Source of the DNA: a virus
DNA length: 42,483 bases
Virus record (IMG/VR): IMGVR_UViG_3300033151_000560
Span: 1 to 42,483 of that record
Strand: one strand, 5' to 3'
Shown here: positions 5,525 to 40,513 of the stretch, one piece after another
How the letters are laid out: each line of letters opens with the position of its first letter
Position numbering within the stretch: position 1 is the first letter of the stretch
Program-made: the position numbers and the translations under genes
The notes under the pieces: model-generated
Database searches by the model: none
Seen by the model: the letters and a program-made list of their open reading frames with translations, nothing else
Told to the model about the DNA's origin: nothing

Positions 5525-6163
5525 TTATTCCTCTGAATTAGCCGATGCTGATGTTATTTTATGTGCTTCAGGTTCCGGCGTTGCTTTAGCTTCTTCGATT
5601 TGTGCAAGAACTGTTTCTAAAATACCTCTGATAACATCTTGTGGTGGTATAAATCCTTCAGGTTTTTTAGCCTTACCATGTTCGTCTTTACCAGCTTTAA
5701 GTTTTTGATTATTGGCGCCTACTACTGCCGCAAAACAGGCAGAATACACTCTGTCCGGTGCATCAATGCCAACTGCATAAAGACAGTTATACATTTTATC
5801 GATGGCGTCCATGAGTGATTTACTCTGCCAATCCATAATATCTGCGTTGCGTTTAATGGTCGCCCACACTTCGTCTATGTCCAAATGTTTATAATCTACA
5901 TCTGTCAGACCGTTGAATTTGCTTTTGGTACCTTCATGTACAAATGTCATATCACATACAGCATCGACGATCTCTGTCAAATATGTAATATTTGGGTGTG
6001 TCATAAAGTCAGTCAGAGCATCTTTAAATTCTTTTGCTTCTTCAGCAAACATTTTAACTTCAAGACCGTCCCTTACATTTAATCCATTTACTGCAATGTT
6101 CCATAGAGTTACTTCCAATAGAGGTGGGAATTCCACATCCATCGATTTATTTGTTTTATTCAT
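5525..6163 (-). CDS. MazG-like nucleotide pyrophosphohydrolase
   Basis: The 212-residue protein starts at the ATG at 6163, which follows AAAGGA; a longer frame from 6205 lacks a site. It shows MazG-type metal-binding helices: FAEEAKEFKDAL (E..E) and EIVDAVCDMTFV (E..D). The family's C-terminal signature follows in VVGANNQKL and GKAKKPEGFIPP. Known members hydrolyse (d)NTPs to (d)NMP and pyrophosphate. In diaminopurine phages the MazZ member makes dGMP from dGTP for PurZ, and a PurZ-like gene lies 3 kb upstream here, so a linked role is plausible. The C-terminal 25 residues are low-complexity and acidic. Substrate not determined by sequence. Confidence 0.75.
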   Translation of the reverse strand: MNKTNKSMDVEFPPLLEVTLWNIAVNGLNVRDGLEVKMFAEEAKEFKDALTDFMTHPNITYLTEIVDAVCDMTFVHEGTKSKFNGLTDVDYKHLDIDEVWATIKRNADIMDWQSKSLMDAIDKMYNCLYAVGIDAPDRVYSACFAAVVGANNQKLKAGKDEHGKAKKPEGFIPPQDVIRGILETVLAQIEEAKATPEPEAHKITSASANSEE

Positions 6164-6214
6164 ATATTGATCCTTTAATTTTTGGTGAGTTGATGTATAA
6201 CACAATACAAATGT

Positions 6215-8894: not shown

Positions 8895-9095
8895 TTAATC
8901 TATATCTAACGAATCTACCACTGCATCCAGCATCTTGTTAGATATCACTACATCGTTCAACGCTTTTTCAAAATGTGGGAAATCCCTAAAGATAGATTCT
9001 TTGATATCTTCCCAACAGACGTAACTTTCCACACATTTTTCTTCGTGAAAATATTTAACCATGGTTAAATCGTCGTCTGTATATTCTCTAGGCAT
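8895..9095 (-). CDS. hypothetical protein, 66 aa
   Basis: A small acidic protein whose start overlaps the last codons of the PurZ-like gene by 8 bases, so the two are probably translationally coupled. It contains two Cys (EEKCVESYVCWED) but no zinc pattern. Its coupling to a nucleotide-biosynthesis enzyme is the only functional hint. Confidence 0.6.
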   Translation of the reverse strand: MPREYTDDDLTMVKYFHEEKCVESYVCWEDIKESIFRDFPHFEKALNDVVISNKMLDAVVDSLDID

Positions 9096-10446
9096 AATTA
9101 AAATCTTCCGACATCACGTCGTCCGTAAATAAGACATTGGACAGATCTCTACCAGTTTGAAGGATGGAAACATCTATGTCTTCCATATCCGCTTCATTTA
9201 AACATTCCCTCAAATCCGTAGCCCACTCTTGGACATCATCATTACTCATAACTATCATAGGGTTAATTTCATCCGCTATGTCAGGAATATGATAATTCAT
9301 GAATGTGAATGATAAATAATCCGGATCGATAGTAACCTTTGCTTTTTTGAGTAGTTCTATTGACGTGGCTCTATCAGGTATGGCGATACGTCTATTTAAC
9401 TTGGTTAATGTGGTCACTTCTTCCACTGTGGAACCAATACGGCTGGATAAATCCCGCCAACTAATTTCCGTCATATCAGTCTCAAATGTCCCGGAAGTAC
9501 CCACTACACCATAAATAGCGTGGACTGTGAAATCAAATCCGAATGGTACTGTGGATTGATTTTTATAGACCACTTTTTCTACAATCGCGTTAACATCTGA
9601 ATATGATAAACCTAACTCCGACGCGTTCACTCTACTTGTTTCTTCGGGGTAATCTATGTTCGAAATGTCAACTGTAACTTTGGAAAAGTCGTCGTCTTTA
9701 AATCTGTTGGAAACTCTGATCGGGTAAACTCTAATGTTACCTACCACTTTACCTAGATATCTTTTAGGACTTAACCCAAAATCTGACATAGCTTGCGCTG
9801 GTGATACATTTCTATATGTGTTATATGGGTACTCGATGGAATAATCTACAGACAATGGAAACCCCTGTGGTAACTCACACAAGGCAGTAAGCCCTTTATT
9901 TAACGATTCAGCCAATTTGGTGGTGTATTCCGGGTAATCTATGATACACGCAATCTCCACCAACTCCGGATAATCTTTAGCCAGTTTGATCGTAGACGAT
10001 CTTGCAGATTTTTCATTAACTGCCGCACTCTGCCCCGAATGTGTACTACCCAAATGGTTTTCCAACCCCATGGCTTTGGCTTCCGCAATTTTATGGGATG
10101 GTTGAATTACCATCGCCCTAGCCGAAATAATTAATTTGTTTTTTGGGATTCCAGTGTATTCAATCTCTTTACGGAGTTGGTCAATCTCAAATCCAGCTGA
10201 TGGGGCTATGATTACTGTTGGGTGATAATCATCTCTCACTTTATATAAAAATGTAGCTGAAGGTAAAATTTTGAATACAAATTCTTCGTCACCTTCTGTG
10301 GCTGTGTGAGAAGCACTTACATTATGTGTACACATAAGTATTTCCGGTCTAAATCTGTCGGCGATCGCTGTAACTACTTGTGCTTTACTTGAACTACCAT
10401 ATGTGATGTCCAGCAGAAAATTCACTTTCCCTTGATCTAATTTCAT
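9088..10446 (-). CDS. purZ-like: PurZ-like adenylosuccinate synthetase homologue
   Basis: This 452-residue protein shows the PurA family motifs in order. YGSSSKAQ (residues 16-23) stands where E. coli PurA has WGDEGKGK. THNVSASHT (40-48) matches the NAGHT block, LGSTHSGQ matches the IMP-contacting IGTTGRG loop, PQGFPLSVDY matches GAQGTLLDIDHG, and ILQTGRD near the end matches STGPDR. The catalytic Asp13 of PurA is Ser18 here, the kind of replacement reported for phage PurZ, which joins Asp to dGMP on the path to diaminopurine DNA. Later insertions differ from both families, so the substrate is uncertain. An AAAGGATATAT site precedes the ATG. A MazG-like gene lies downstream; no dATP hydrolase (DatZ) was seen in the window. 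Confidence 0.75.
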   Translation of the reverse strand: MKLDQGKVNFLLDITYGSSSKAQVVTAIADRFRPEILMCTHNVSASHTATEGDEEFVFKILPSATFLYKVRDDYHPTVIIAPSAGFEIDQLRKEIEYTGIPKNKLIISARAMVIQPSHKIAEAKAMGLENHLGSTHSGQSAAVNEKSARSSTIKLAKDYPELVEIACIIDYPEYTTKLAESLNKGLTALCELPQGFPLSVDYSIEYPYNTYRNVSPAQAMSDFGLSPKRYLGKVVGNIRVYPIRVSNRFKDDDFSKVTVDISNIDYPEETSRVNASELGLSYSDVNAIVEKVVYKNQSTVPFGFDFTVHAIYGVVGTSGTFETDMTEISWRDLSSRIGSTVEEVTTLTKLNRRIAIPDRATSIELLKKAKVTIDPDYLSFTFMNYHIPDIADEINPMIVMSNDDVQEWATDLRECLNEADMEDIDVSILQTGRDLSNVLFTDDVMSEDFNYA

Positions 10447-12669: not shown

Positions 12670-13223
12670 TGTACTCCTTCTAAATTAAGTATAAGATCTG
12701 TCAAATGTAACCCCCATCTCGAAATGGAATAATCAGCCTCAACATGTGTGTTCCACGGTTGATCATATTTGATAACAACATGATGACCCATAGAAGCTTC
12801 GATCACTGTTGGATTATCATCTATGATAATTCCGGGGAGTAACAAATGTTTGTCTTTCATGCATATCAAATGGTGATCAAACACAAACCAATTGAAATAT
12901 TGCATAAGGGATTGTACTTTACCCTCATAAGCATGGGTGGTTACTATGTGAGTTACAAATCTAATTTCGTACCCTAACCTGTGTAGTATTTCGATGGATG
13001 TTATAGAATATTGATACGGCTTCATATTTCTGAAGAAATCTTGGGTCAGATAGTCATATTTATCCACCTCTGAGAGACCAAATAATTTGTTCATGTGATA
13101 ACCCACTGATACTAATTCTTCGTCGGTCGGTATGATCAAATCGCCAGTATGCTTTTCATGAGCTTTTGAATATGCGTGTCTGTAATCAAACACAGTCGAA
13201 TCGAGGTCGATATAGATAATCAT
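12666..13223 (-). CDS. HAD-family 5'(3')-deoxyribonucleotidase-like protein
   Basis: The 185-residue protein has HAD motif I IDLDSTVFD at residues 5-13 (nucleophile and acid Asp), a motif II Thr in RFVTH, a Lys-bearing motif III (MKDKHLL) and motif IV IIIDDNP. This order and size fit the NT5C-type nucleotidases that dephosphorylate dNMPs. In the phage it would trim nucleotide pools, in line with dUTPase and the MazG-like enzyme. The start overlaps the endonuclease stop (ATGA), and its GGAAATATT site is inside the end of the endonuclease gene. Confidence 0.7.
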   Translation of the reverse strand: MIIYIDLDSTVFDYRHAYSKAHEKHTGDLIIPTDEELVSVGYHMNKLFGLSEVDKYDYLTQDFFRNMKPYQYSITSIEILHRLGYEIRFVTHIVTTHAYEGKVQSLMQYFNWFVFDHHLICMKDKHLLLPGIIIDDNPTVIEASMGHHVVIKYDQPWNTHVEADYSISRWGLHLTDLILNLEGVQ

Positions 13224-14209
13224 AATATTTCCTTTTTTAAAATTAACGGTATTTTATTATATTCTGTGTATGGTATCCTAATTAATTTCGTATTGTTATC
13301 AACGCAAAACTGATTTTTAATTTCGTCCAACTCTTGTCTTTTTTTAAGTCCTTTTTCTCCGCCCCATCTCTTTACAGATATAAAATGTTGAATACCATCA
13401 AACTCTATGGTTGTGTTGTGATCGGGAAGATAAAAATCAAATCGGAGTTTAGGTAGATTTGGAAATTTGTGTTCTCTAACGTAATCAATACTGTTTTTAT
13501 CCAGCCACAATCTGATTCTTTCTTCACCCTTTGATTCTTTACACGATGGACAACCAATCCCTTTGACGTGTTCTTTGGGGGTTTGTTTAAAATCACCATG
13601 GGTTTTGCATGTTATGACGACTTTAGTTGTCCCATTAACATACACCGTCTTAAAATAATCATATTTGTTCTCATGGACTTTGTGTGATTCCTGTATAAAT
13701 TCGTCAATAGATTTTGACGAAGCATCTGTTGCACATTTTCGGCATCCCTTACCTGCCAAATGGTTTGATGGAAGTTGATGATAGTCACCATGTTTGGGGC
13801 AGACGATTATAACTTTGGTGGTAAAATTTTTATAGATCGTTTTAGAGTAGCCGTATTTGTTGTTGTGGACTTTTACAGCATCTCGTATAAATTGTTCAGG
13901 AGTTTTCTTCTCACTACCCCCACATTTGTTACACCCCATACCTTGCAAATGGTTGTTTGGTATTTGTTCAAAGTCGCCGTGGACGGAACAAGTAATCACA
14001 ACTCGTGCGTGGGCATTAATATAATTCACATTAGAATAGTTATATTTGTTATTGTGGACTTTTTTAGCTTTAGTTATAAACCAATGTGTTTTCCATGTAA
14101 CTGGTATTTTTGAAAGTACACTGGGACTATTTATTTTTCCAATCACTTTCTTAAATGCTTCAAAATCTGTTAGATCGTTTGTAACATCTTTGAGTTCTGC
14201 CAGTTTCAT
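13220..14209 (-). CDS. free-standing EDxHD (Vsr-like) homing endonuclease
   Basis: The 329-residue protein has three tandem zinc-binding repeats (about residues 45-100, 105-160, 165-220) of the form HNNKYxYS..Y....TKVVITC..HGDF.Q.P..HL.G.GC.KC. These are followed by a nuclease domain with FDFYLPDHNTTIEFDGIQHF (E, D, Q-H). That combination matches the Vsr-like EDxHD homing endonucleases described with fractured genes and split inteins. A near paralogue lies at 25718-26767. It has its own TATAAT promoter and CTAAAGGA site. It sits between the TOPRIM and nucleotidase genes with no intein around it. Confidence 0.8.
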   Translation of the reverse strand: MKLAELKDVTNDLTDFEAFKKVIGKINSPSVLSKIPVTWKTHWFITKAKKVHNNKYNYSNVNYINAHARVVITCSVHGDFEQIPNNHLQGMGCNKCGGSEKKTPEQFIRDAVKVHNNKYGYSKTIYKNFTTKVIIVCPKHGDYHQLPSNHLAGKGCRKCATDASSKSIDEFIQESHKVHENKYDYFKTVYVNGTTKVVITCKTHGDFKQTPKEHVKGIGCPSCKESKGEERIRLWLDKNSIDYVREHKFPNLPKLRFDFYLPDHNTTIEFDGIQHFISVKRWGGEKGLKKRQELDEIKNQFCVDNNTKLIRIPYTEYNKIPLILKKEIL

Positions 14210-14259
14210 AATTGTCCTTTAGGAAAATTATATCACATATCAGCTTAAAAGAAGCTTAA
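14207..14259 (-). repeat. 5' flank shared with the other endonuclease gene, copy 1
   Basis: From the TAA stop of the upstream gene to the endonuclease ATG, this sequence closely matches 26765-26817. Both read TTAAGyTTCTTTTAAGC, then TGnTATAATTTTCC, then TAAAGGAnAATTATGA. It therefore carries the stop codon, promoter and ribosome site as one unit. Confidence 0.75.
14227..14250 (-). promoter_or_regulatory. promoter, TTTAAG-N11-TGATATAAT type
   Basis: Minus-strand TATAAT is preceded by TG one base away (extended -10) and by TTTAAG 11 bases upstream. The same arrangement occurs before the second endonuclease (26785) and before the sigma-like operon (33293). Confidence 0.65.
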
Positions 14260-14867
14260 ACAAAATCTTTAAGTGATTGATTCATTAAATTCTTAAATCT
14301 ACGGCTTTTACATTTAAAAACGTTAATATCGTTGTATGGATAGGATAGATGTTCGACGTCCACCCCATATTTTTCTTTTGCCATACTCTCAAATCTCCCT
14401 GTGGCTTTTACACCGGCTTCGTCATTATCAAAAGCCGTTATTAATTTCGTGTTGGATGTAAGGAACATCAGAAAATGGAACTGAGCCAACGTGAAAGATG
14501 CTCTGAAGGTAGATATAGCTATAACATCTTCTGATGTAAGGATTTGGTTTATAGATTCAGCGTCGATCACTGCCTCTGTAATGACTATTACTTTTTTATC
14601 TTTTATTCTGTTGATGTTCCATAACGGTATTGTGTATTCGGACTGGTGTATCTTTGTGTATACACCGCCTAAAGATCGATTTTCTATCAGGGCTACTGTC
14701 CCTTGTGTGGAATATGTTACTATAAATAAGCCTGAATATAATACATCTCTGTACAAAATTCCGTTACAGTAGTACATATCTGACACAAGTTCTAAATTTC
14801 TTGTGTCCAAATATTCCATAAGACTGTTATGATTGTGTTTTTTTGCTATATTATCTAATAATTCCAT
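14256..14867 (-). CDS. primase TOPRIM-domain protein
   Basis: The 203-residue protein contains a TOPRIM fold: VIVITEAVIDAESINQ with Glu98, then LITAFDNDEAGVKA with Asp147 and Asp149, the metal-binding acidic residues of DnaG-type primases. It lacks an N-terminal zinc domain; a CHC2-like protein at 28342-28794 may supply that role in trans. No ribosome site precedes the ATG, but TATAAA ends 5 bases before it, so the mRNA may be leaderless. It ends at a TAA belonging to the endonuclease 5' flank, so the natural C-terminus may have been replaced. Confidence 0.75.
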   Translation of the reverse strand: MELLDNIAKKHNHNSLMEYLDTRNLELVSDMYYCNGILYRDVLYSGLFIVTYSTQGTVALIENRSLGGVYTKIHQSEYTIPLWNINRIKDKKVIVITEAVIDAESINQILTSEDVIAISTFRASFTLAQFHFLMFLTSNTKLITAFDNDEAGVKATGRFESMAKEKYGVDVEHLSYPYNDINVFKCKSRRFKNLMNQSLKDFV

Positions 14868-15347: not shown

Positions 15348-15968
15348 TTATTGATTAACGACCTTTAATTCTGACCCTTCTTTTTCGAAATGCACTATTT
15401 GATCGGCGTATTCCGTAAGCCTATCTTGATGGGTAACTAAAACTATGGTCATGTTAAACTCGTCACATAAAACCTTAATAAAATTACTTAGTTTTCCTTG
15501 GTAACTTTCAGACACGTGGTTTAGGGACTCATCCATCATCATTATTTTTGGTTTGTTTTGCAAAATGTTGATAGACACCCGTAATAAGAAACTAACTGTA
15601 GCCATAATTCCACCACCAAAATTGTTGATGTCTCCCACTATACTACTCTTTTTATCTTCCAGTGTATACGAAAAAATATTTTTATTTTGTTTTATGGAAT
15701 GGTTTATGACAAAAGCATAATCCGTCATAAATATGTACTCTAAACCTCTGTTTACTATGTTTTGTACAAATTCACTGTTACCCATAACTGTTTTTTCTAC
15801 TAAGGTACTGATGATTTTTATACTCTGTTCAAACACTTCTATTTCAGATGATTTTTCATGGATAGACACAATCAACCCATCCAATTCATCATGCTTGGAA
15901 TTCAACAGACTTTTTGCAGCATAAATTTCCTGATTTATACCCTCCGGGCTAAATAAAGTATTACACAT
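15348..15968 (-). CDS. Rad50/SbcC (gp46-like) C-terminal ATPase half
   Basis: The 206-residue protein is only the second ABC ATPase lobe of a Rad50/SbcC protein: a short helical stretch (residues 20-60), signature FGGG at 117-120, Walker B KIMMMDES at 141-148 and switch His in VLVTHQ at 180. It has no Walker A. The missing lobe with Walker A and zinc hook is the separate gene at 18303-19535, three genes upstream. Together with Mre11/SbcD (17312-18310) they would form the end-resection complex that feeds UvsX. The coiled coil here is much shorter than in the N-half. Confidence 0.8.
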   Translation of the reverse strand: MCNTLFSPEGINQEIYAAKSLLNSKHDELDGLIVSIHEKSSEIEVFEQSIKIISTLVEKTVMGNSEFVQNIVNRGLEYIFMTDYAFVINHSIKQNKNIFSYTLEDKKSSIVGDINNFGGGIMATVSFLLRVSINILQNKPKIMMMDESLNHVSESYQGKLSNFIKVLCDEFNMTIVLVTHQDRLTEYADQIVHFEKEGSELKVVNQ

Positions 15969-17311: not shown

Positions 17312-18310
17312 TTAATTTTTGATTTTTGCTTGTTCTACATATTTGTTTATAACTTCTCTGATCTTTTTGGGTAATTCCAACCCCTCTAATTGTTCTTCCA
17401 TAGTAACACCTGACAGACCATCCGAACTTAACAAACTAGTCATTTCCTCAATTGTGTTTTGTTCTTCCAGTTCTTTTTCAAGAATTTTTGGATTAAACAC
17501 TTCTGAAGTTGGGGGTACCAATAATGGTACATGAATCACGGTGTCATTGTCAGTATCTAATATAGCCACTTCCGGGGTGTGTTCATCATTTAGAACATAA
17601 TAATTCCTAGCTAAACGGTAGATATTCCACGGGTTAATATACCACTGCTTCCTACCGGATTTAGTTTCATAATAAGTCGGTTTAAAGCCTCTGTGTAAGT
17701 GACCCATAACAAACCCATTGATTTTATCAAATTTAACCAAATCCTCATATGTGTGGAACGATGAATATTTTAAATCGCCTACTTCATCGTTCATCGATAT
17801 AAAATGTTCGTGTGTCATCACTATGTTATACAAGTCAGGGTCTGCGTTTGTGTTAATTTTTTCTAACTCCTCAAACAATTGTTTACTATCAGATAAAAAA
17901 GGAACTCCGTATATTACAGTGTCCCCTATTCTTGTTTTAGAGAATGATAGATCTGTGATCATGTTTACTTGGGACATTAGACCATAAAATGATCTATCCA
18001 TTTCCGCATAATTACTCCATGGTAAATCATGATTACCGGGTATAGTTAGTACGCCGTGTTCTACTTCTGACCCTAGTTTCTGCATAAGTGCCATATTACC
18101 CGATATCGATGATAAAGAGTATGAAGATGGATATTTTTTATCAGTAACATCACCGGCTACCAATACAGCTACTACTCCGTGTTCAACACCAATTTTGACT
18201 ATTTGGTCTATTTTTTCGTTTATGACTGTGTTATAATCATCTTTCCTAGATATTGGAGATGGAAATCCAAATCTGAAATGGGGGTCACACACACACATGA
18301 ATTTAGGCAT
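17312..18310 (-). CDS. Mre11/SbcD (gp47-like) nuclease
   Basis: A 332-residue metallophosphoesterase with all family motifs: CDPHF (D9, H11), AGDVTD (D54), IPGNHDLP (N93, H94), MTHEHF (H167) and MGHLHRG (H204, H206). These bind the two metal ions of the exo/endonuclease site. The C-terminal 80 residues are helical and acidic, as expected for the Rad50-binding part. The start overlaps the end of the Rad50 N-half gene by 8 bases. It would act with the two Rad50 halves in DNA-end processing for recombination-dependent replication. Confidence 0.9.
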   Translation of the reverse strand: MPKFMCVCDPHFRFGFPSPISRKDDYNTVINEKIDQIVKIGVEHGVVAVLVAGDVTDKKYPSSYSLSSISGNMALMQKLGSEVEHGVLTIPGNHDLPWSNYAEMDRSFYGLMSQVNMITDLSFSKTRIGDTVIYGVPFLSDSKQLFEELEKINTNADPDLYNIVMTHEHFISMNDEVGDLKYSSFHTYEDLVKFDKINGFVMGHLHRGFKPTYYETKSGRKQWYINPWNIYRLARNYYVLNDEHTPEVAILDTDNDTVIHVPLLVPPTSEVFNPKILEKELEEQNTIEEMTSLLSSDGLSGVTMEEQLEGLELPKKIREVINKYVEQAKIKN

Positions 18311-19535
18311 GATTTGCTCCTATAAGGTTTCCACAACAAGGACATTCATCCATGTTATTATTTTTAAGTTCATCTCTCTCGTCCATTTTTACACGTAAAC
18401 TGGTATTACGTAAATTTATCACGTTATACACCAACGCATACCCCATCATTAAATAGACTGTTTTGTATATCTTAGATAATTTATTGGCTGTGACTAGTTT
18501 GGCAGAATTATTCTGAAGAATGTTAGTATTAGAAACTGTTTCTCTCTTAATAATTTCTAATTTATCTTTATTGTCTAAAACAATAATAACTTTATCCAGT
18601 TTGGTTATAAATTTGGAAAATATTAGAGCTTTATTTGTTAACTTACCAAATTTGGTTGTATTTCTTGCTATCTCCTCTTGGATTTCCTTGGCTTCTGTTA
18701 ATTTCTGAACATAAGAGCAGGTATTTAGTATCTTAGATATGCTTTCTTGGGTTCTCTTTTTATTTAGTCTTTTGCATATGGAGGAAGTATAATGACGTCT
18801 CTCGTCTTTAAAAATGTTAAAATTGTACAAAGTGTTTAATGTGGTAATGATACCACTAGTGTGTTTCTGCGTTTTTGTTTTATCTTCTAATATAGATGTT
18901 ATTTCATCATGAGCCTCTGAAAATTCTTTGTACTCTTTAAGGTTATGAATGTTATGAATCAGCCCTTGCATAGCTTGAAGTTTTTTGAGTTTATTGGATA
19001 TCAATGTTACTTCTAGATTGAGATTAGATTTTCTACCCTCATCATACGCTATCTCTCTATTGATGGCTAATGTGTCTTTGTTTATTAGACGGATAGCCTC
19101 CTCATAAAGATCGGTACCAAATAAAGACTGGAATATTTTAGTTTGCACATATTCAGTTTCATCTACTAAGAATAATGGTTTGTATTGAGGCACTACTAAT
19201 GTGTTATCAAACCCGCCGTTATAAGAGAATGGGGAATAACCCCGATCTGCCATAGCGTCGGGTACACCCATACCTACTTTGCTGTACGTCTTCCCCGCAA
19301 TTTCGTAAGTGTTAACGGTGGTAGATTTTACTCTATGTATCCCATCAACAGTTATTTCCATTTTTTTGGTACCATGTCTTAAATATGTTTTATTATATTC
19401 GTTGTCCAACACAAATTTGACCGATCTAACAATGGCAGATTTACCTATGTCACTGTTACCAGTCAAAGCTACGAATCCATTCATGTCCAGTTTAACATGT
19501 TTAATTGATTGGAAATTTTTGATCTCAAGAAGCAT
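18303..19535 (-). CDS. Rad50/SbcC (gp46-like) N-terminal half ending at a zinc hook
   Basis: The 410-residue protein starts with an ABC ATPase lobe I: EIKNFQSIKHVKLD then Walker A GNSDIGKS (26-33). About residues 155-390 are coiled coil. It ends with CPCC (398-401), the CxxC zinc hook, and stops nine residues later. There is no second coiled-coil arm and no signature or Walker B; these lie in the separate gene at 15348-15968. Rad50 family proteins are normally one chain with the hook in the middle. The frame is open and shows no frameshift, so the split appears to be an established arrangement. Confidence 0.85.
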   Translation of the reverse strand: MLLEIKNFQSIKHVKLDMNGFVALTGNSDIGKSAIVRSVKFVLDNEYNKTYLRHGTKKMEITVDGIHRVKSTTVNTYEIAGKTYSKVGMGVPDAMADRGYSPFSYNGGFDNTLVVPQYKPLFLVDETEYVQTKIFQSLFGTDLYEEAIRLINKDTLAINREIAYDEGRKSNLNLEVTLISNKLKKLQAMQGLIHNIHNLKEYKEFSEAHDEITSILEDKTKTQKHTSGIITTLNTLYNFNIFKDERRHYTSSICKRLNKKRTQESISKILNTCSYVQKLTEAKEIQEEIARNTTKFGKLTNKALIFSKFITKLDKVIIVLDNKDKLEIIKRETVSNTNILQNNSAKLVTANKLSKIYKTVYLMMGYALVYNVINLRNTSLRVKMDERDELKNNNMDECPCCGNLIGANHA

Positions 19536-24726: not shown

Positions 24727-25746
24727 TTATTTTTTCTTAGCTTGTAACCCTGCCAAATCAGTATATACCGTTATTTCTGCTTCATATCTTATGGTGTCCA
24801 GTTGAGACTGTATGTGGGACGGTATTTTGGTTAATTTTTTCATAGGTTTGATATCTATACCGGGTGTCGGTAGACCCTGAGAGTTTAGACCCGGGGTCAA
24901 TCCATTCCCAATTTCTATTTTTGTGCTGACTTTAGTTTTTAACTGATGGAAACTTATATACTCAGATCTACCTTTACCCTTAGAACTGGAGTACCTATGT
25001 GTGTCCGTACCTGATATGTTTAGGTTTATCGGGGTAAGCACTGTATTACGATCGTCTATAAAACAACTGTGTAATATGCCAATATATAGCGCTCTATGCA
25101 TGTTTAACGTACGGAATATAGACACTAGATCAATAACATTTTTCACATCGGCTTTAGTCGTGTCAGATAAATATTCTATACTATCTATGTTACCGGATAA
25201 GTGTGACACGATTTCATCTTTGGTACTAAATTCCTCTTTTACTCTATGTTTTAATTGAGTCAGTTTTCTAGAAAGTTTTAAATATTCGCTTATAAAATCA
25301 AAAAATTCGGGGTCTTCACCTTTCCATTCCGATTTCAACATTTTAACTATTAAATTACCTACCATAGGGGAAGATATACCTATAGGTTCAAAGTTATATT
25401 TGGTCGTGTAGGTGTCCAGTCTTTTTTGTATACTTTGTATTCTTATTATAACTGTCTCTACTGATGTGGATAAACGATCAAAATCAATCGGTAAACCGTA
25501 TGTTAAAGAAGAATTAGAAGTGTACACAGTTTTATGTAGTATATTGGTAGCCAAAGCTTGATGTTTATAAGGGTTTCTTTTATACCTGTCCTCTATTACA
25601 AAAACATCATATAGACCAAAAGTATTGCAAGCGTCACTGCAATTGTGGACGGATACGCCGTTGGCATAAAATCTGTGGTTGGGGTGGTTGACTTCAATGT
25701 CATAAACGTTATGCTCTTCAGACGGGGATACTGACACTACTTTCAT
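24727..25746 (-). CDS. split-intein C-half fused to DNA polymerase C-extein
   Basis: Residues 1-35 are an intein C-terminal fragment (VYDIEVNHPNHRFYANG then VSVHN), and Cys36 is the +1 extein residue. The extein begins CSDACNTFGLYDVF, completing the Exo III motif (YxxxD) begun in the gene at 26814-27923. It then gives a thumb-like helical region and GTDTHRYSSS, matching the TGRLSS segment of family A polymerases. The frame ends in LQAKKK before motifs A, B and C, so the palm and fingers must be encoded elsewhere or be lost. AAGGAATTTATAA sits 5' of the ATG, inside the end of the endonuclease gene. Confidence 0.85.
   Translation of the reverse strand: MKVVSVSPSEEHNVYDIEVNHPNHRFYANGVSVHNCSDACNTFGLYDVFVIEDRYKRNPYKHQALATNILHKTVYTSNSSLTYGLPIDFDRLSTSVETVIIRIQSIQKRLDTYTTKYNFEPIGISSPMVGNLIVKMLKSEWKGEDPEFFDFISEYLKLSRKLTQLKHRVKEEFSTKDEIVSHLSGNIDSIEYLSDTTKADVKNVIDLVSIFRTLNMHRALYIGILHSCFIDDRNTVLTPINLNISGTDTHRYSSSKGKGRSEYISFHQLKTKVSTKIEIGNGLTPGLNSQGLPTPGIDIKPMKKLTKIPSHIQSQLDTIRYEAEITVYTDLAGLQAKKK
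25642..25746 (-). other. split intein, C-terminal half (35 aa)
   Basis: A 35-residue fragment ending VHN with Asn as the last intein residue, His before it and Cys as the first extein residue: the block F and G chemistry for trans-splicing. Its length matches known natural IntC fragments. Confidence 0.88.
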
Positions 25747-26767
25747 TTATAAATTCCTTAATAATTGTCATCACTCTAACGCGCATGTTTTCGTGATTGG
25801 TAGAATAGACATCTTTTGCTCTGATTCTCAATAGTTCGATGTTTTTTCTCTTACAGTATATATTTTTTCTTTTGTCTCTGTCTAATGTATCTTGGAAGAG
25901 TAACATATCTTTATTGTTAAACGAAGGTTTATAATGTTGCTCACCGTCGTATTCTATCGCCATGTTATGATCAGGGAGATAAAAATCAATAAACTGATAC
26001 CCTCTTTCTTGAGTTTTTATTCTGTGTTGTCTTATCACCGGGTCAAACTCAGACTTGATCATGTTGTATACCAAATCTTCTTGGTAAGATTTTTTATTTT
26101 TAAAAATACCTCTACCACGTTTGATATTATGGAAATCTTTAAACCATACTTCCCCTCCGTTTGTAAACTTTATGTTGGTACGATGCCCGTTGAACCTACA
26201 AATGGAATATTTTATGCCGGGGAATCGTGCCATGTGAATTTTCATGTGTGAATTTATGAAATCCAACGAAATTCGAGTGGGGGAACATTTGGGGCATTTA
26301 GTTTTTTTGACGTCCAAACGTTTCATAAACTTTTCGTCACAATTCGGGCACGTACATACGCATGACCTGCTCCCACCTGAGCCAGTGTCAGTGTAATTTA
26401 TCATGGCTACGAAATTAGGGACGTCGTATTTGGTGTTATTGTGAAATGTTATTTTCGTGACTAAATGGATTTTGTCCCACTCTATGCCCCATTTAGAAAA
26501 TTGATTTTTAAATTTAACATCACCTCGACACTTTGACACTCGTTTCTTACCATAATTTGATATGTTTACACTTTTGCATTTGTCGCACCCCTCGTACCCC
26601 AACAAATGATTTCTTGGTTTTTGTTGGAATTCACCGTGATCAGGACAAATGATTGCAATTTTGGTCTCTCTGTTGACATATTCCATTTTGGAATAACCAT
26701 ACTTGTTGTTGTGTACTTTGTTAGCTTTTTTTAAAAATTGTGTAAACAAAACTGGCGGTGTACTCAT
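25718..26767 (-). CDS. EDxHD homing endonuclease between split-intein halves
   Basis: The 349-residue protein starts with one zinc-binding repeat (VHNNKYGYS, CPDHGEFQQKP, HLLGYEGCDKC). A second Cys cluster follows (CVCTCPNC, CPKC), then a nuclease domain with IDFYLPDHNMAIEYDGEQHY, closely like the enzyme at 13220-14209. It is not fused to the intein but encoded as its own protein. It presumably cuts intein-less polymerase alleles to spread the cassette. Its 3' end overlaps the IntC gene start by 29 bases. Its promoter and CTAAAGGA site lie in the flank shared with the other copy. Confidence 0.85.
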   Translation of the reverse strand: MSTPPVLFTQFLKKANKVHNNKYGYSKMEYVNRETKIAIICPDHGEFQQKPRNHLLGYEGCDKCKSVNISNYGKKRVSKCRGDVKFKNQFSKWGIEWDKIHLVTKITFHNNTKYDVPNFVAMINYTDTGSGGSRSCVCTCPNCDEKFMKRLDVKKTKCPKCSPTRISLDFINSHMKIHMARFPGIKYSICRFNGHRTNIKFTNGGEVWFKDFHNIKRGRGIFKNKKSYQEDLVYNMIKSEFDPVIRQHRIKTQERGYQFIDFYLPDHNMAIEYDGEQHYKPSFNNKDMLLFQDTLDRDKRKNIYCKRKNIELLRIRAKDVYSTNHENMRVRVMTIIKEFINESSVSIPV

Positions 26768-26817
26768 AATTATCCTTTAGGAAAATTATACCATACTTTG
26801 GCTTAAAAGAAACTTAA
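26765..26817 (-). repeat. 5' flank shared with the other endonuclease gene, copy 2
   Basis: It matches 14207-14259 over nearly its whole length, including the TAA stop of the IntN frame, the TTTAAG-N11-TATAAT promoter and the CTAAAGGA ribosome site. Differences are concentrated in the promoter spacer. Confidence 0.75.
26785..26808 (-). promoter_or_regulatory. promoter, TTTAAG-N11-TGGTATAAT type
   Basis: Extended -10 TGGTATAAT with TTTAAG 11 bases upstream of TATAAT, directly before the endonuclease gene. It would allow the endonuclease, and possibly the IntC half, to be made independently of the upstream polymerase transcript. Confidence 0.65.
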
Positions 26818-27923
26818 TCCGATTCCGTCACCACGTCGTCACCACTTTTAAGATTTCCCGCTTCTATCCATCCCCGGTTGGTGGTCTCTATCAAATGATC
26901 AGCCGTACACACTAAAGACTTGCCCTTTTCAAAATTAACAGTTACAGTGCGTTGTCTACCGTTATCGAATAACGTAACCAAATCTACATAACCATCGGGA
27001 GAATGCACTTGTAAATCGGGATAGCTGTCTAAATAAGACTGAGCATCTTTGATGTTTATGTGCTCCACTTTTTTATCTCCGTCGTATCTTATTTTTATTT
27101 GGGTACTTCCTACAACACAAGCGTAAATATACGCGTTTACAGCGGGAAGACGATTAAACAGTATGATACCATTTTTCTGCACACCCAGTATTTCTGCGAT
27201 CTCCAGCATTTTTCTTTTTAAGACGTATTCACTTAATTTTTTAAGACCATTCCTTACCCATTGTTCAAAATATTCCCAATTGTTCATAATTTTGTTCAAT
27301 AACATAGTGTCCGCAAAATTGGTGTCATCCACTATAACACCATTGTTCATCAGAACATTCATGTCATACTGTGCATTGTGATAAATTATGTGATATTTGT
27401 TTACCAGTTTAGTCAGGAACTCTATGGCGTCCTCATAGGGGAAATTTGGGACTTCATCTTCTTCAGTGTGCATAATTGGAATGTAATACCCCTCTGTAGA
27501 GGAAGTAGCTAGTGGGATACCAACTATTTTTACATCTATCTCGTATTCGCTATTATATAATCTCCAGTTAGGTGATAGCCCGGTGGTTTCTAAATCTAAT
27601 GCAACTATTTTCTTTTTAGCATATGGGCTAGTTTGAGCTTCTTTCTCAATGATGTCCATGAGAGTATCTAAAGAATCAACTTCGATTATATCATCTACGG
27701 GAACATAATCAGGCAGAATAGTTCCCGTTTTTACTACTATCCTCATCCGTACTTTCGACATCCACCCAAATTCAGGTTTGCTTTCTATCAATTCTTTTTT
27801 AGTGAACATAGAACTAGGCGGTATATTTTCGTTGGTTTGGTCAAACTTGGCTTGTGCTATTTTTATCAAATTCTCGTATTCAGGAAATCTTTTTTTCGTG
27901 AACTTATGTACAAATGGTTGCAT
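26814..27923 (-). CDS. DNA polymerase exonuclease domain fused to split-intein N-half
   Basis: Residues 1-268 are the N-extein with family A 3'-5' exonuclease motifs: Exo I VALDLETTG (D110, E112) and Exo II YHNAQYDMNVL (N183, D187). The sequence NAYIYA is where Exo III begins. Residue 269 is the intein Cys1 (CVVGSTQI), followed by an intein B-block CTADHLIET (TxxH) and RGWIEAGNLKSGD, to the stop at 369. The intein has no endonuclease domain of its own. The partner half is at 24727-25746. Trans-splicing would join Tyr-Ala to Cys-Ser-Asp and rebuild the catalytic Exo III Asp. Function requires splicing. Confidence 0.88.
   Translation of the reverse strand: MQPFVHKFTKKRFPEYENLIKIAQAKFDQTNENIPPSSMFTKKELIESKPEFGWMSKVRMRIVVKTGTILPDYVPVDDIIEVDSLDTLMDIIEKEAQTSPYAKKKIVALDLETTGLSPNWRLYNSEYEIDVKIVGIPLATSSTEGYYIPIMHTEEDEVPNFPYEDAIEFLTKLVNKYHIIYHNAQYDMNVLMNNGVIVDDTNFADTMLLNKIMNNWEYFEQWVRNGLKKLSEYVLKRKMLEIAEILGVQKNGIILFNRLPAVNAYIYACVVGSTQIKIRYDGDKKVEHINIKDAQSYLDSYPDLQVHSPDGYVDLVTLFDNGRQRTVTVNFEKGKSLVCTADHLIETTNRGWIEAGNLKSGDDVVTESD
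26817..27119 (-). other. split intein, N-terminal half (101 aa)
   Basis: The 101 residues start with Cys1 and include block A (CVVGSTQI) and block B with the TxxH motif (CTADH). The length matches natural IntN fragments of fast split inteins from phage-derived fractured genes. Confidence 0.88.
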
Positions 27924-28341: not shown

Positions 28342-28794
28342 TTATATGTTTACGCTTTCGATGTCCGCCATTAATTTATTGATAAAAGATGGATCTTCCT
28401 TGGACATAAAACCACTTATGGCTTTTTCTACCTCGCCGGGGGAGGGAGATGATAAACGCCTGATTATTATTAGTTTATCAGATAAACCGTTGTCCTTACC
28501 TTGATGTTTGTGATCGGACAACTCTATATTATAATTTACCCTAATATAATCTAATGCATCACGGAACGATAAAGACATTAGTTCCATGATAAATCCGACT
28601 GGTGTATAACTCTCTCCGGCACCCCAATCATAACAACTTCCGAGATCGCCTTCCTCGCCTTTTGGGGCATATACCCTTAGTGAAGGATTACTGTCACGTC
28701 TAAAAGGGGAGGAGACCGTAACGTCACCCACTCCTGAGAATCCATGACCTAATTCATCGTTGATGACCTCGATCATAAGATTTCGTTCTTCCAT
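28342..28794 (-). CDS. primase zinc-domain-like (CHC2) protein lacking zinc ligands
   Basis: The 150-residue protein follows the primase zinc-domain pattern: VSSPFRRDSNPSLRV matches 'CPFHxexTPSF', SCYDWGAGESYTPVGFIMEL matches 'CFgCGxgGdvixFvm', and then SFRDALDYI. Most of the Cys/His ligands of the family are replaced by Ser, Arg and Trp, leaving one Cys, so it probably does not bind zinc. The TOPRIM half of a primase is encoded 13 kb away at 14256-14867. It may be the template-recognition part of a two-gene primase or a helicase-binding relative. Confidence 0.6.
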   Translation of the reverse strand: MEERNLMIEVINDELGHGFSGVGDVTVSSPFRRDSNPSLRVYAPKGEEGDLGSCYDWGAGESYTPVGFIMELMSLSFRDALDYIRVNYNIELSDHKHQGKDNGLSDKLIIIRRLSSPSPGEVEKAISGFMSKEDPSFINKLMADIESVNI

Positions 28795-38227: not shown

Positions 38228-40513
38228 TTATTTAAGTATTGTGGTTTTATACATGTTAGATAATTTTGTCTTAACCCATGTATCGCTATCTGCCCCTTCA
38301 AAAAGATCTTTTGCTTTAGGGTCTAATAACCCTTCTTCTACTTGGTCGGGGTTTGTCTTGGTGAGAAGATACAGTGATGCCTGAATGTTTGCCCATTTGA
38401 CTTCGTCTATGCTGTTTTCTACCATAGGTACCACCACATTTAAATAGTTGAATGTGGTTCCTATCCTGCTTATACGACCAACAATCTGTATAAATTGACC
38501 TACTGTCTCCGGTATAGTCAGAAATGCTATAGTATCCGCTACCTTGTGGACGCCGTCAAATCCTTTAGCAATAGAATCTGTCCCGACCAATACTTTAATC
38601 TTATCGTCAGTTAGGAATTGCTTCTTGATCTCGGCAGAGTATTTGGAATTTCCACCGTGGATAGACACTGCCCCTATACCTTCCCGCTTATTGAGTATTG
38701 TCTCGAAGTAGATTGCTACTGTTCTGAATTGAGTATATACCATGACTTTTTCGTCTGCAGATTCTTTAATAAACTTAACCAATTCCGCGATCTTCGTGGG
38801 GGTAGGGAGTTTTTCTTGTATAGTAACTGCTGGTGCTGTATTAGCTATGTTTATCAAAGACGAGGGGACGCCGTCGGGATACTTTTCCAATAATACAGTA
38901 AAAGCTTTACCAAAATTAAGATCTTTTGTAACCTTGAGAGGTATTGGCACAAATGGTGGCATATCCATAATCTCAGATTTTTTCTTGGTGTATAATTTAT
39001 CTTTAAACAATTCATAAAATTCGTCAATGTTCCTATATCCGACTAAAGTTTTCTGCTTATTTACCATTTTACCCCTAACACGACGAGGTTTGACATATAT
39101 GTCTTCAAAAGTACAGAAGTTACCATAGAATCGCCCTAAGTTATATAAAAATATTCCAGTAATACTAAGTATATAATACATATCCAATAACTCTTTCATG
39201 ATTGGGGTAGCCGTCATAGCCAACAATCTAGTAGACGACTCTGACATACGTTGAGCTACTTTAGTAACTTGGGCTTTCGGATTTTTTACTGCTGTGGCTT
39301 CATCTAAAATGAGATGGACATCGTTATAATGATATATGTCCATAAGATGATGTATGTCGTTTCTGAGCTTCTGATAGTTTATTACTATAAAATCGGTGTC
39401 TTCTTTATATGCCTTGTGCCTCTTTTTAGCGGACATATTAACTACATTAGTTATCCTAACATCTATGTCAAAAAATTCATCTTTGGTGTCTTGCACCTGA
39501 CTAGCTGTGGTTTTTTCACAGACAAAGATACATCTGTTTACCACACCCATTTCTTTTAACTTTAAGAAGTATATCATAGCCAATAAAGTCTTACCACTAT
39601 TATGAACCACTATACCGTTAGCAGTAAAGTTGTGGTGGGGGGTCTCACACGATATGTCATATGTATCCACAACACCATTATCTTCTACGTTAATACATTC
39701 GTCGTAGGATATGGCTCCCTGATTGAAATTTGAAGTATACTGTGAGGTGTGTATTAGTCTATGTTGTTTTTTTGTAAGATGTGTTAAATTTTGAGGATCA
39801 TTATTATAATGGTCAAAATCTATATGGTGGATGTCGTAAATTTTGGGGTCTATAAACATAAGATCGCTAACATCTGCAGTAGTGGTCATACGACACCTGT
39901 ACTCTTCTAAAGATAACAAATTTATTTTTGCTTCGTATATGGCTCTGTGTTTTTCAATTCTACATGTTTTGCCATCTCTTGTAGAATTTATTTCTTTAGC
40001 GTATGGATGATAAACAGTCCGTATAAAAGTATCTGAATATTTTACTTTTTTGTTATTCTTTGAAGAAGCTTTGATGTTAACATCAATCATAGCCTTTTTG
40101 TGTAGCATATCTTTGGCTTCTACCCATCCCGTGTCTGTCATAATTTTGTGTTCCGGGGTGCACACTAAAAAAGTACCACCCCCGAAATGCAACTTGATAG
40201 TATATTTTTGCCCCGAATACACCACGTCTTCTACATTGTTAAGACCAATTTTGTCACCTAAGTACGACCTGACTTTCACAGATGAATTTTCTTTCCAGTT
40301 GTATCTACCCCCGTTAAGGGTGTCTATGCGATTATATCTGTAGTACATATCCTTAATAGTGATTTTTTTACCCCTACCGTTAAGATTAATCCTTATTTCT
40401 GTATCCCCACCTAAACAGCCTGTAGGGAGAGCTATCAGACTTCTTTTAGAATGAGAACTATGTTTGATAGCCCCACCCTGATGATCGTAAAGTTTTATGC
40501 CTTTTTTTAACAT
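38228..40513 (-). CDS. SNF2/UvsW-type helicase with HNH intein
   Basis: The 761-residue precursor has extein residues 1-32 (ending ALPTG), an intein (33-305) and extein 306-761 starting SGKTLLAMIYF. Splicing rebuilds the Walker A PTG-SGKT. Other SF2/SNF2 motifs are LILDEATAVKNP (II), MTATPIMKELLDMYYILS (III), VYTQFRTVAIYF (IV), SIAKGFDGVHK (V) and QIVGRISRIGTT (VI). The mature protein is about 488 residues. UvsW-type helicases drive branch migration and fork regression in recombination-dependent replication; an origin-unwinding role is also possible. Unspliced protein should be inactive. Confidence 0.9.
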   Translation of the reverse strand: MLKKGIKLYDHQGGAIKHSSHSKRSLIALPTGCLGGDTEIRINLNGRGKKITIKDMYYRYNRIDTLNGGRYNWKENSSVKVRSYLGDKIGLNNVEDVVYSGQKYTIKLHFGGGTFLVCTPEHKIMTDTGWVEAKDMLHKKAMIDVNIKASSKNNKKVKYSDTFIRTVYHPYAKEINSTRDGKTCRIEKHRAIYEAKINLLSLEEYRCRMTTTADVSDLMFIDPKIYDIHHIDFDHYNNDPQNLTHLTKKQHRLIHTSQYTSNFNQGAISYDECINVEDNGVVDTYDISCETPHHNFTANGIVVHNSGKTLLAMIYFLKLKEMGVVNRCIFVCEKTTASQVQDTKDEFFDIDVRITNVVNMSAKKRHKAYKEDTDFIVINYQKLRNDIHHLMDIYHYNDVHLILDEATAVKNPKAQVTKVAQRMSESSTRLLAMTATPIMKELLDMYYILSITGIFLYNLGRFYGNFCTFEDIYVKPRRVRGKMVNKQKTLVGYRNIDEFYELFKDKLYTKKKSEIMDMPPFVPIPLKVTKDLNFGKAFTVLLEKYPDGVPSSLINIANTAPAVTIQEKLPTPTKIAELVKFIKESADEKVMVYTQFRTVAIYFETILNKREGIGAVSIHGGNSKYSAEIKKQFLTDDKIKVLVGTDSIAKGFDGVHKVADTIAFLTIPETVGQFIQIVGRISRIGTTFNYLNVVVPMVENSIDEVKWANIQASLYLLTKTNPDQVEEGLLDPKAKDLFEGADSDTWVKTKLSNMYKTTILK
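39599..40417 (-). other. intein with HNH endonuclease domain (273 aa)
   Basis: The intein begins Cys1 (CLGGDTEI) and ends VVHN with Ser as the +1 residue. Block B is VCTPEHKIMT (TxxH) and block F is VVDTYDISCETPHHNF. Between them an HNH-type homing endonuclease is visible as EKHRAIYEA and IYDIHHIDFDHYNNDPQNL then KKQHRLIH. It sits between Gly and Ser of the P-loop. Confidence 0.88.

What the first reader, a model, noticed from the sequence alone, without database searches (positions are those of the whole stretch)
24727..27923. DNA polymerase fractured by a split intein exactly in the Exo III catalytic motif, with a free-standing endonuclease between the halves
Seen: the 268-residue N-extein ends NAYIYA and is followed by a 101-aa IntN that stops. 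A complete EDxHD endonuclease gene follows, then a 35-aa IntC ending VHN and a C-extein starting CSDAC. Joining gives Y-A-C-S-D, the YxxxD Exo III motif of family A polymerases. Known: fractured genes with split inteins and EDxHD endonucleases have been described in phage-derived metagenomes. Inference: proofreading depends on trans-splicing, so splicing could control fidelity or timing of replication, and the insertion targets the most conserved residues of the gene.
Basis: partly seen in the sequence, partly recalled or inferred. Interest (0 to 1): 0.93.

Follow-up and report, generated by a model that had tools for sequence, protein, structure and literature searches.

The report
Split-intein-fractured phage polymerase exonuclease subunit
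A phage gene for the proofreading half of its DNA polymerase has been cut in two by a mobile split intein carrying its own DNA-cutting enzyme, so two proteins must be stitched together to rebuild the active site; the arrangement is a known kind in a new place, and the stitched protein is only part of the polymerase.

Summary
A 369-aa ORF (268-aa N-extein + 101-aa IntN) and a 339-aa ORF (35-aa IntC + 304-aa C-extein) flank a complete free-standing endonuclease gene. Class 1 splicing residues are all present, and the joined intein resembles VidaL and gp41-1. Joining the exteins restores YACSD, the Exo III YxxxD motif of family A polymerases. The same three-gene layout is known in cultured phage (Yersinia phage TG1 NrdA).

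The interpretation needs correcting. The joined 572-aa protein is not a complete polymerase. It stops before catalytic motif A, and no palm domain (PF00476) is found in the 42-kb contig. An intein-free relative (L089, 30% identity) encodes this protein as one ORF ending at the same point, with motif A and motifs B/C in separate downstream genes. The cultured phage MEP401 breaks its PolA at the same place. So the intein invaded the exonuclease-thumb subunit of a polymerase that was already divided.

Trans-splicing is therefore very probably needed for a working exonuclease site. Control of fidelity or timing is unsupported, because inteins normally occupy conserved catalytic sites. This is a new member of a known kind. 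The palm gene and the splicing itself were not shown.

The parts
27120..27923 (-). N-extein, 268 aa: N-terminal region plus 3'-5' exonuclease domain with Exo I (LDLETTG) and Exo II (YHNAQYD), ending Y-A before the Exo III aspartate
   Evidence: ORF; PF01612 36.5 bits alone, 44.2 joined; AlphaFold model matches Klenow exonuclease, E 7e-10, prob 1.00
26817..27119 (-). IntN, 101 aa, Cys1 (CVVGST) and block B TxxH (TADH); stop codon 26814-26816
   Evidence: sequence; joined intein matches VidaL E 3e-15, gp41-1 E 6.5e-11; IntN alone matches TG1 NrdA IntN E 3e-5
25718..26767 (-). free-standing homing-endonuclease-like gene, 349 aa, zinc-ribbon-like Cys repeats and C-terminal DFYLP...ExDGxQH nuclease motif (Vsr/PD-(D/E)xK-like; EDxHD probable)
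   Evidence: phrog_559 E 7e-38, phrog_9084 homing endonuclease E 1e-16; tblastn to 607 phage records, one annotated group I intron VSR; own start and SD
25642..25746 (-). IntC, 35 aa, block F VYDIEVNHPNHRFYANG, block G VSVHN; own ATG and SD, overlapping the HEG 3' end by 29 nt
   Evidence: sequence; joined intein matches
24730..25641 (-). C-extein, 304 aa: C+1, S+2, D+3 (Exo III Asp), end of exonuclease domain, thumb-like region, TGRxSS-like motif (THRYSS), ending at or just before motif A; stop 24727-24729
   Evidence: BLASTP to L089 E about 1e-6; hhalign prob 95.8 at TGRxSS block; phrog_17 gain on joining

Best explanation
A mobile split intein (IntN and IntC as separate genes) plus a free-standing homing endonuclease has invaded the Exo III codons of a phage family A polymerase gene. 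The two precursor proteins are made separately and joined by trans-splicing through Cys1, the terminal Asn and Cys+1. This yields a 572-aa exonuclease-thumb protein whose YxxxD Exo III site exists only after joining. That protein is itself one subunit of a polymerase already divided in this lineage just before motif A; the palm (motifs A, B, C) is inferred to come from one or more other genes lying outside this contig and to bind non-covalently. Splicing is best read as constitutive repair of a parasite's insertion, and the endonuclease as the driver of spread to empty alleles. Shown: the layout, the motifs, the exact junction, one intein-free homologue with the same end point, and no detectable palm in the contig. 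Inferred: that splicing occurs, that the palm is elsewhere, and that the endonuclease cuts the empty site.
For: Layout and residues. Score gains on joining exteins and intein halves. Intein resembles VidaL, gp41-1 and NrdJ-1. Klenow alignment places the junction at Exo III. L089 encodes both exteins in one ORF (276 aa at 33%, E 1e-29; 289 aa at 20%, E 2e-6) with YGASDATNT at the empty site. No PF00476 in the contig, with positive controls ringing, and no palm ORF by phmmer. L089: motif A ORF and motif B/C ORF (PF00476 110 bits) are separate genes. MEP401: gp13 ends TGRLSSSSPNLQN...SRYGE and gp15 starts at motif A (PMC10580990). Same three-gene layout in YenM_TG1 NrdA, including HEG/IntC-gene overlap.
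Against: Splicing was not observed. The C-extein is strongly diverged (6 bits alone against the PolA profile; model pLDDT 58 and no significant fold match). The palm gene of this phage was not seen, and only one intein-free homologue was found. The joined intein is just under Pfam's cut-off (32.1 vs 35.8 bits).
Confidence: 0.78

Rival explanations
1. The spliced 572-aa protein is a stand-alone proofreading exonuclease, a remnant of a former PolA, and the phage replicates with some other polymerase and has no palm subunit of its own.
For: No palm found in the 42-kb contig although many replication genes (DnaB, UvsX, clamp-like, SSB-like, SbcCD) are there; stand-alone exonucleases related to phage PolA exist (ExnV1, 7r0t).
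Against: The thumb-like region and TGRxSS-like motif are kept and would be useless to an exonuclease alone. L089 and MEP401, with the same break point, do have palm genes. The contig is a fragment.
Confidence: 0.12
2. Trans-splicing is a control step: the phage withholds proofreading until splicing occurs, tuning fidelity or timing.
For: The Exo III aspartate lies on the C-extein at +3, so an unspliced N-half should lack exonuclease activity.
Against: The closest characterised relatives by sequence include gp41-1, which the literature calls high performing (PMC11923092). Inteins prefer conserved sites for reasons of persistence, not control (PMC2814812). A HEG sits in the gap, as expected of a parasite. 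L089 does without the intein. No known regulatory RNA was recognised.
Confidence: 0.05
3. The element is decayed: splicing no longer works, and the two halves either associate without splicing or are non-functional.
For: Strong divergence of the C-extein; polymerase genes here are already divided without inteins (L089).
Against: All class 1 catalytic residues are intact (C1, TADH, D in VYD, HN, C+1), three frames are intact with their own SDs, and the exonuclease motifs are intact. Without splicing the intein halves would sit inside the Exo III region.
Confidence: 0.05

Closest known systems
Fractured genes with split inteins (Dassa et al. 2009, paper not held; cited in PMC7090010 and PMC6892783)
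   Same: two host-gene halves fused to IntN and IntC, encoded apart, with a free-standing homing endonuclease gene between them
   Different: host gene is a family A polymerase exonuclease-thumb gene, site is Exo III; endonuclease family label EDxHD not verified here
Yersinia phage vB_YenM_TG1 NrdA fractured gene
   Same: same order and orientation, HEG gene between, HEG end overlapping the IntC gene start; inteins align throughout, both VHN|C
   Different: host gene is ribonucleotide reductase; HEG annotated HNH, not evidently related in sequence
Pseudomonas phage MIJ3 split PolB intein with HNH HEG (PMC6892783) and Aeromonas phage Aes123 PolB1 split intein (PMC11923092)
   Same: split intein in a phage replicative DNA polymerase; in MIJ3 a HEG lies between the halves
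   Different: family B polymerases, other sites; Aes123 intein is cysteine-less
Methylophilales phage MEP401 two-gene PolA (PMC10580990)
   Same: exonuclease plus N-terminal PolA gene ends between TGRLSS and motif A, palm on another gene, no intein recognised
   Different: palm gene is two genes downstream there; not found in this contig; exonuclease half not interrupted by an intein
L089, IMGVR_UViG_3300017598_001230
   Same: 30% identical over the joined exteins; same end before motif A
   Different: no intein; motif A and motif B/C genes follow close by

Membership tests
class 1 split intein (gp41-1 / VidaL type) | N-terminal nucleophile, block B TxxH, block G His-Asn, and Cys/Ser/Thr at +1 | tested here: met
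   C1 in CVVGST, TADH, VHN, C+1
class 1 split intein (gp41-1 / VidaL type) | the two splicing halves on separate polypeptides | tested here: met
   IntN ends in TAA; IntC has its own ATG and SD
class 1 split intein (gp41-1 / VidaL type) | sequence homology to known inteins over the whole length | tested here: met
   VidaL E 3.2e-15 over 7-135 of 136; gp41-1 E 6.5e-11; PF14890 32.1 bits, slightly under the 35.8 cut-off
class 1 split intein (gp41-1 / VidaL type) | protein trans-splicing activity | not testable with these tools
   needs an experiment
fractured gene (split intein + free-standing HEG) | HEG gene between the two halves, in a third ORF | tested here: met
   26767-25718; phrog_559 and phrog_9084
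fractured gene (split intein + free-standing HEG) | intein-free homologue with the exteins contiguous | tested here: met
   L089 564-aa ORF aligns across the junction
EDxHD homing endonuclease (I-Bth0305I) | sequence or fold match to a known EDxHD enzyme | tested here: inconclusive
   no PDB hit by phmmer or relevant hit by a two-sequence profile; ExDGxQH motif and a homologue annotated group I intron VSR fit
family A DNA polymerase | 3'-5' exonuclease domain with Exo I, II and III | tested here: met
   PF01612 44.2 bits on the joined exteins, cut-off 23.6
family A DNA polymerase | palm with motifs A, B and C in the same protein | tested here: not met
   joined protein ends before motif A; no PF00476 in the contig. 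Not filed as a complete polymerase
split PolA of the MEP401 type | break between TGRxSS and motif A | tested here: met
   same end point in window, L089 and MEP401 gp13
split PolA of the MEP401 type | separate palm gene in the same genome | tested here: inconclusive
   present in L089 and MEP401; contig of the window is a fragment without it

The most novel reading that the evidence does not exclude
Proofreading in this phage is switched on by trans-splicing: until the two halves meet, the separately encoded palm replicates DNA without a working exonuclease, so splicing sets when the polymerase becomes faithful.
Probability: 0.05. Interest if true: 0.85.

Novelty: new member of a known kind. 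Interest (0 to 1): 0.42.

Why it matters
If right, it adds a family A polymerase exonuclease site to the genes fractured by split inteins. It also gives a natural case of a replication enzyme whose parts are joined in two ways: one break healed by trans-splicing, another left as separate subunits. Comparing the two breaks would show when a divided enzyme needs a covalent join. The Cys1/VHN|C intein is also a candidate for protein-ligation work.

Tried and rejected
Whole remaining polymerase in the C-extein: rejected. Palm reached by slippage at the A-run before the C-extein stop: both other frames close before the SSB-like gene about 60 nt on, read by eye. Group I intron in place of an intein: no Rfam match. 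Close relatives: single-protein scans found none besides L089 itself; degenerate patterns gave only L089. Recurrence of an intein at Exo III: pattern VHNCxxDAxxT in 2.9 million viral contigs gave no polymerase, only other genes or chance; this tests one exact pattern only. PolA relatives by profile: of about 60 full ones, all but L089 are single ORFs, the rest cut by contig ends. C-extein structure: low confidence, uninformative. EDxHD by PDB: no hit. MaF61 as a relative by its PurZ: shares nothing else.

Full report
Observation. On the minus strand, ORF 27923-26814 encodes 369 aa: a 268-aa N-extein ending NAYIYA and a 101-aa IntN starting CVVGSTQ. ORF 26767-25718 encodes a 349-aa endonuclease. 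ORF 25746-24727 encodes 339 aa: a 35-aa IntC ending VHN and a 304-aa C-extein starting CSDAC. Each start codon follows an SD-like sequence, and the endonuclease end overlaps the IntC start by 29 nt in another frame. These are three separate genes, not one intein broken by sequencing errors.

More than chance. Joining the exteins improves PF01612 from 36.5 to 44.2 bits and completes the domain. It raises phrog_17 (DNA polymerase) from 59.3 to 78.0 bits with collinear cover. Klenow aligns across the junction with YAAED opposite YACSD, the Exo III motif. Joining the intein halves gives VidaL at E 3e-15, gp41-1 at E 6.5e-11 and NrdJ-1 at E 6e-5, and PF14890 at 32.1 bits, just under its cut-off. 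All class 1 residues are present.

What the joined protein is. A profile of about 60 phage PolA proteins (637 positions) matches the joined exteins at 119 bits. The N-extein model matches Klenow and phage G20c PolA exonuclease domains with probability 1.00. But the protein ends before motif A. PF00476 is not found anywhere in the contig, while the control genomes ring, and phmmer with palm sequences finds nothing. The C-extein's last residues, TDLAGLQAKKK, faintly resemble the start of a motif A (MDLTTAE in L017, L021 and others); I could not settle whether this is real.

The relative that decides. A degenerate pattern for YHNAQYD led to L089 (IMGVR_UViG_3300017598_001230, 43.8 kb). Its 564-aa ORF aligns with both exteins in one frame (33% over 276 aa, E 1e-29; 20% over 289 aa, E 2e-6), with YGASDATNT where the intein sits in the window. 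This ORF also ends before motif A. Motif A (AIDYSAIEPR) lies in a separate 210-aa ORF and motifs B and C in a third, 387-aa ORF (PF00476, 110 bits). Profile coverage is 31-369, 393-428 and 424-625. No intron was recognised between them.

A cultured precedent for the second break. In phage MEP401 PolA is two genes (PMC10580990). Here gp13 was found to end TGRLSSSSPNLQNFDGEIKTLFLSRYGE and gp15 to start MILNADAKALEWVCASFLSQD, so the break is again just before motif A. Three phages thus share this break point, and the window's missing palm is most simply a gene outside the contig. That is an inference: the contig is a fragment and the palm was not seen.

The endonuclease. It belongs to phrog_559/phrog_9084, with an N-terminal region of Cys motifs and a C-terminal DFYLP...ExDGxQH motif shared with a second gene in the window and, in part, with Bacillus phage AR9's intron endonuclease annotated VSR. 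This fits a Vsr/EDxHD-like nuclease, but no direct match to a characterised EDxHD enzyme was obtained. The family label stays probable.

Mechanism. Two precursors are translated, IntN and IntC associate, and the exteins are ligated, giving ...NAYIYA-CSDACNT.... The catalytic Asp at +3 is on the C-extein, so the unspliced N-half should be inactive as an exonuclease (inference from the family's mechanism). The spliced 572-aa protein then serves as the exonuclease-thumb subunit beside a separate palm. The endonuclease would cut the empty Exo III site and copy IntN-HEG-IntC into it. No step after translation was observed.

Against a regulatory role. Inteins sit preferentially in conserved, catalytic regions because precise loss is hard and the target cannot easily change (PMC2814812). 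The relative without the intein keeps the same gene. No known regulatory RNA was recognised. I put control of fidelity at about 5%.

Known or new. The layout is known: Yersinia phage TG1 carries NrdA-IntN, an HNH endonuclease gene and IntC-NrdA in the same order, with a similar overlap. Split inteins in phage family B polymerases are known, one with a HEG between the halves (PMC6892783, PMC11923092, PMC12707363). I found no report of a split intein in a family A polymerase Exo III motif in the held library, nor another occupied site by one exact pattern in viral contigs. Dassa et al. 2009 was not available, so priority cannot be claimed. The combination of a spliced break and an unspliced break in one polymerase appears new.

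Noticed in passing
window 38228-40513 (-): SNF2/DEAD-type helicase with a contiguous HNH-containing intein inserted in the Walker A motif (GLPTG|C...HN|SGKT); PF14890 42.8 bits, HNH_3.
   Followed up: partly
window 13220-14209 (-): A second free-standing endonuclease of the same family (phrog_559, E 2e-72; 32% identical to the first), next to the TOPRIM gene; no intein motifs seen beside it.
   Followed up: partly
window 18303-19535 and 15348-15968 (-): SbcC-like ATPase in two genes divided at the zinc-hook region (first ends CPCCGNLIGANHA, second has Walker B), with SbcD-like and sliding-clamp-like genes between; no intein motifs seen.
   Followed up: partly
window 28342-28794 and 14256-14867 (-): Primase also in two genes about 14 kb apart: CHC2-type zinc-ribbon gene and TOPRIM gene, no intein motifs seen. 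Several replication enzymes of this phage are divided.
   Followed up: no
window 9088-10446 and 5525-6205 (-): PurZ-like synthase (best NCBIfam model PurZ, 119 bits, under cut-off; phrog_1211) and a MazG-like pyrophosphohydrolase, which suggests a 2-aminoadenine genome.
   Followed up: partly
L089 3928-7738 (IMGVR_UViG_3300017598_001230): Family A polymerase in three separate genes: exonuclease-thumb, motif A, and motifs B/C; no intein or known intron recognised.
   Followed up: yes
L003 5836-11112 (LR745208.1, 485-kb phage): PolA with two large contiguous inteins, one near motif B (HN|SCNFALCYGGG) and one further on (HN|TSAD), and an intein C-terminus in the neighbouring DnaB-like gene.
   Followed up: no
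L097 and L098: Found by the junction pattern: intein ends (VHNC) in what look like a terminase large subunit gene and a portal gene; assignment by eye only.
   Followed up: no
window 24727-24745 (-): The C-extein ends AAGAAAAAATAA, an A-run right before the stop that could allow slippage, though no palm follows in the other frames.
   Followed up: partly
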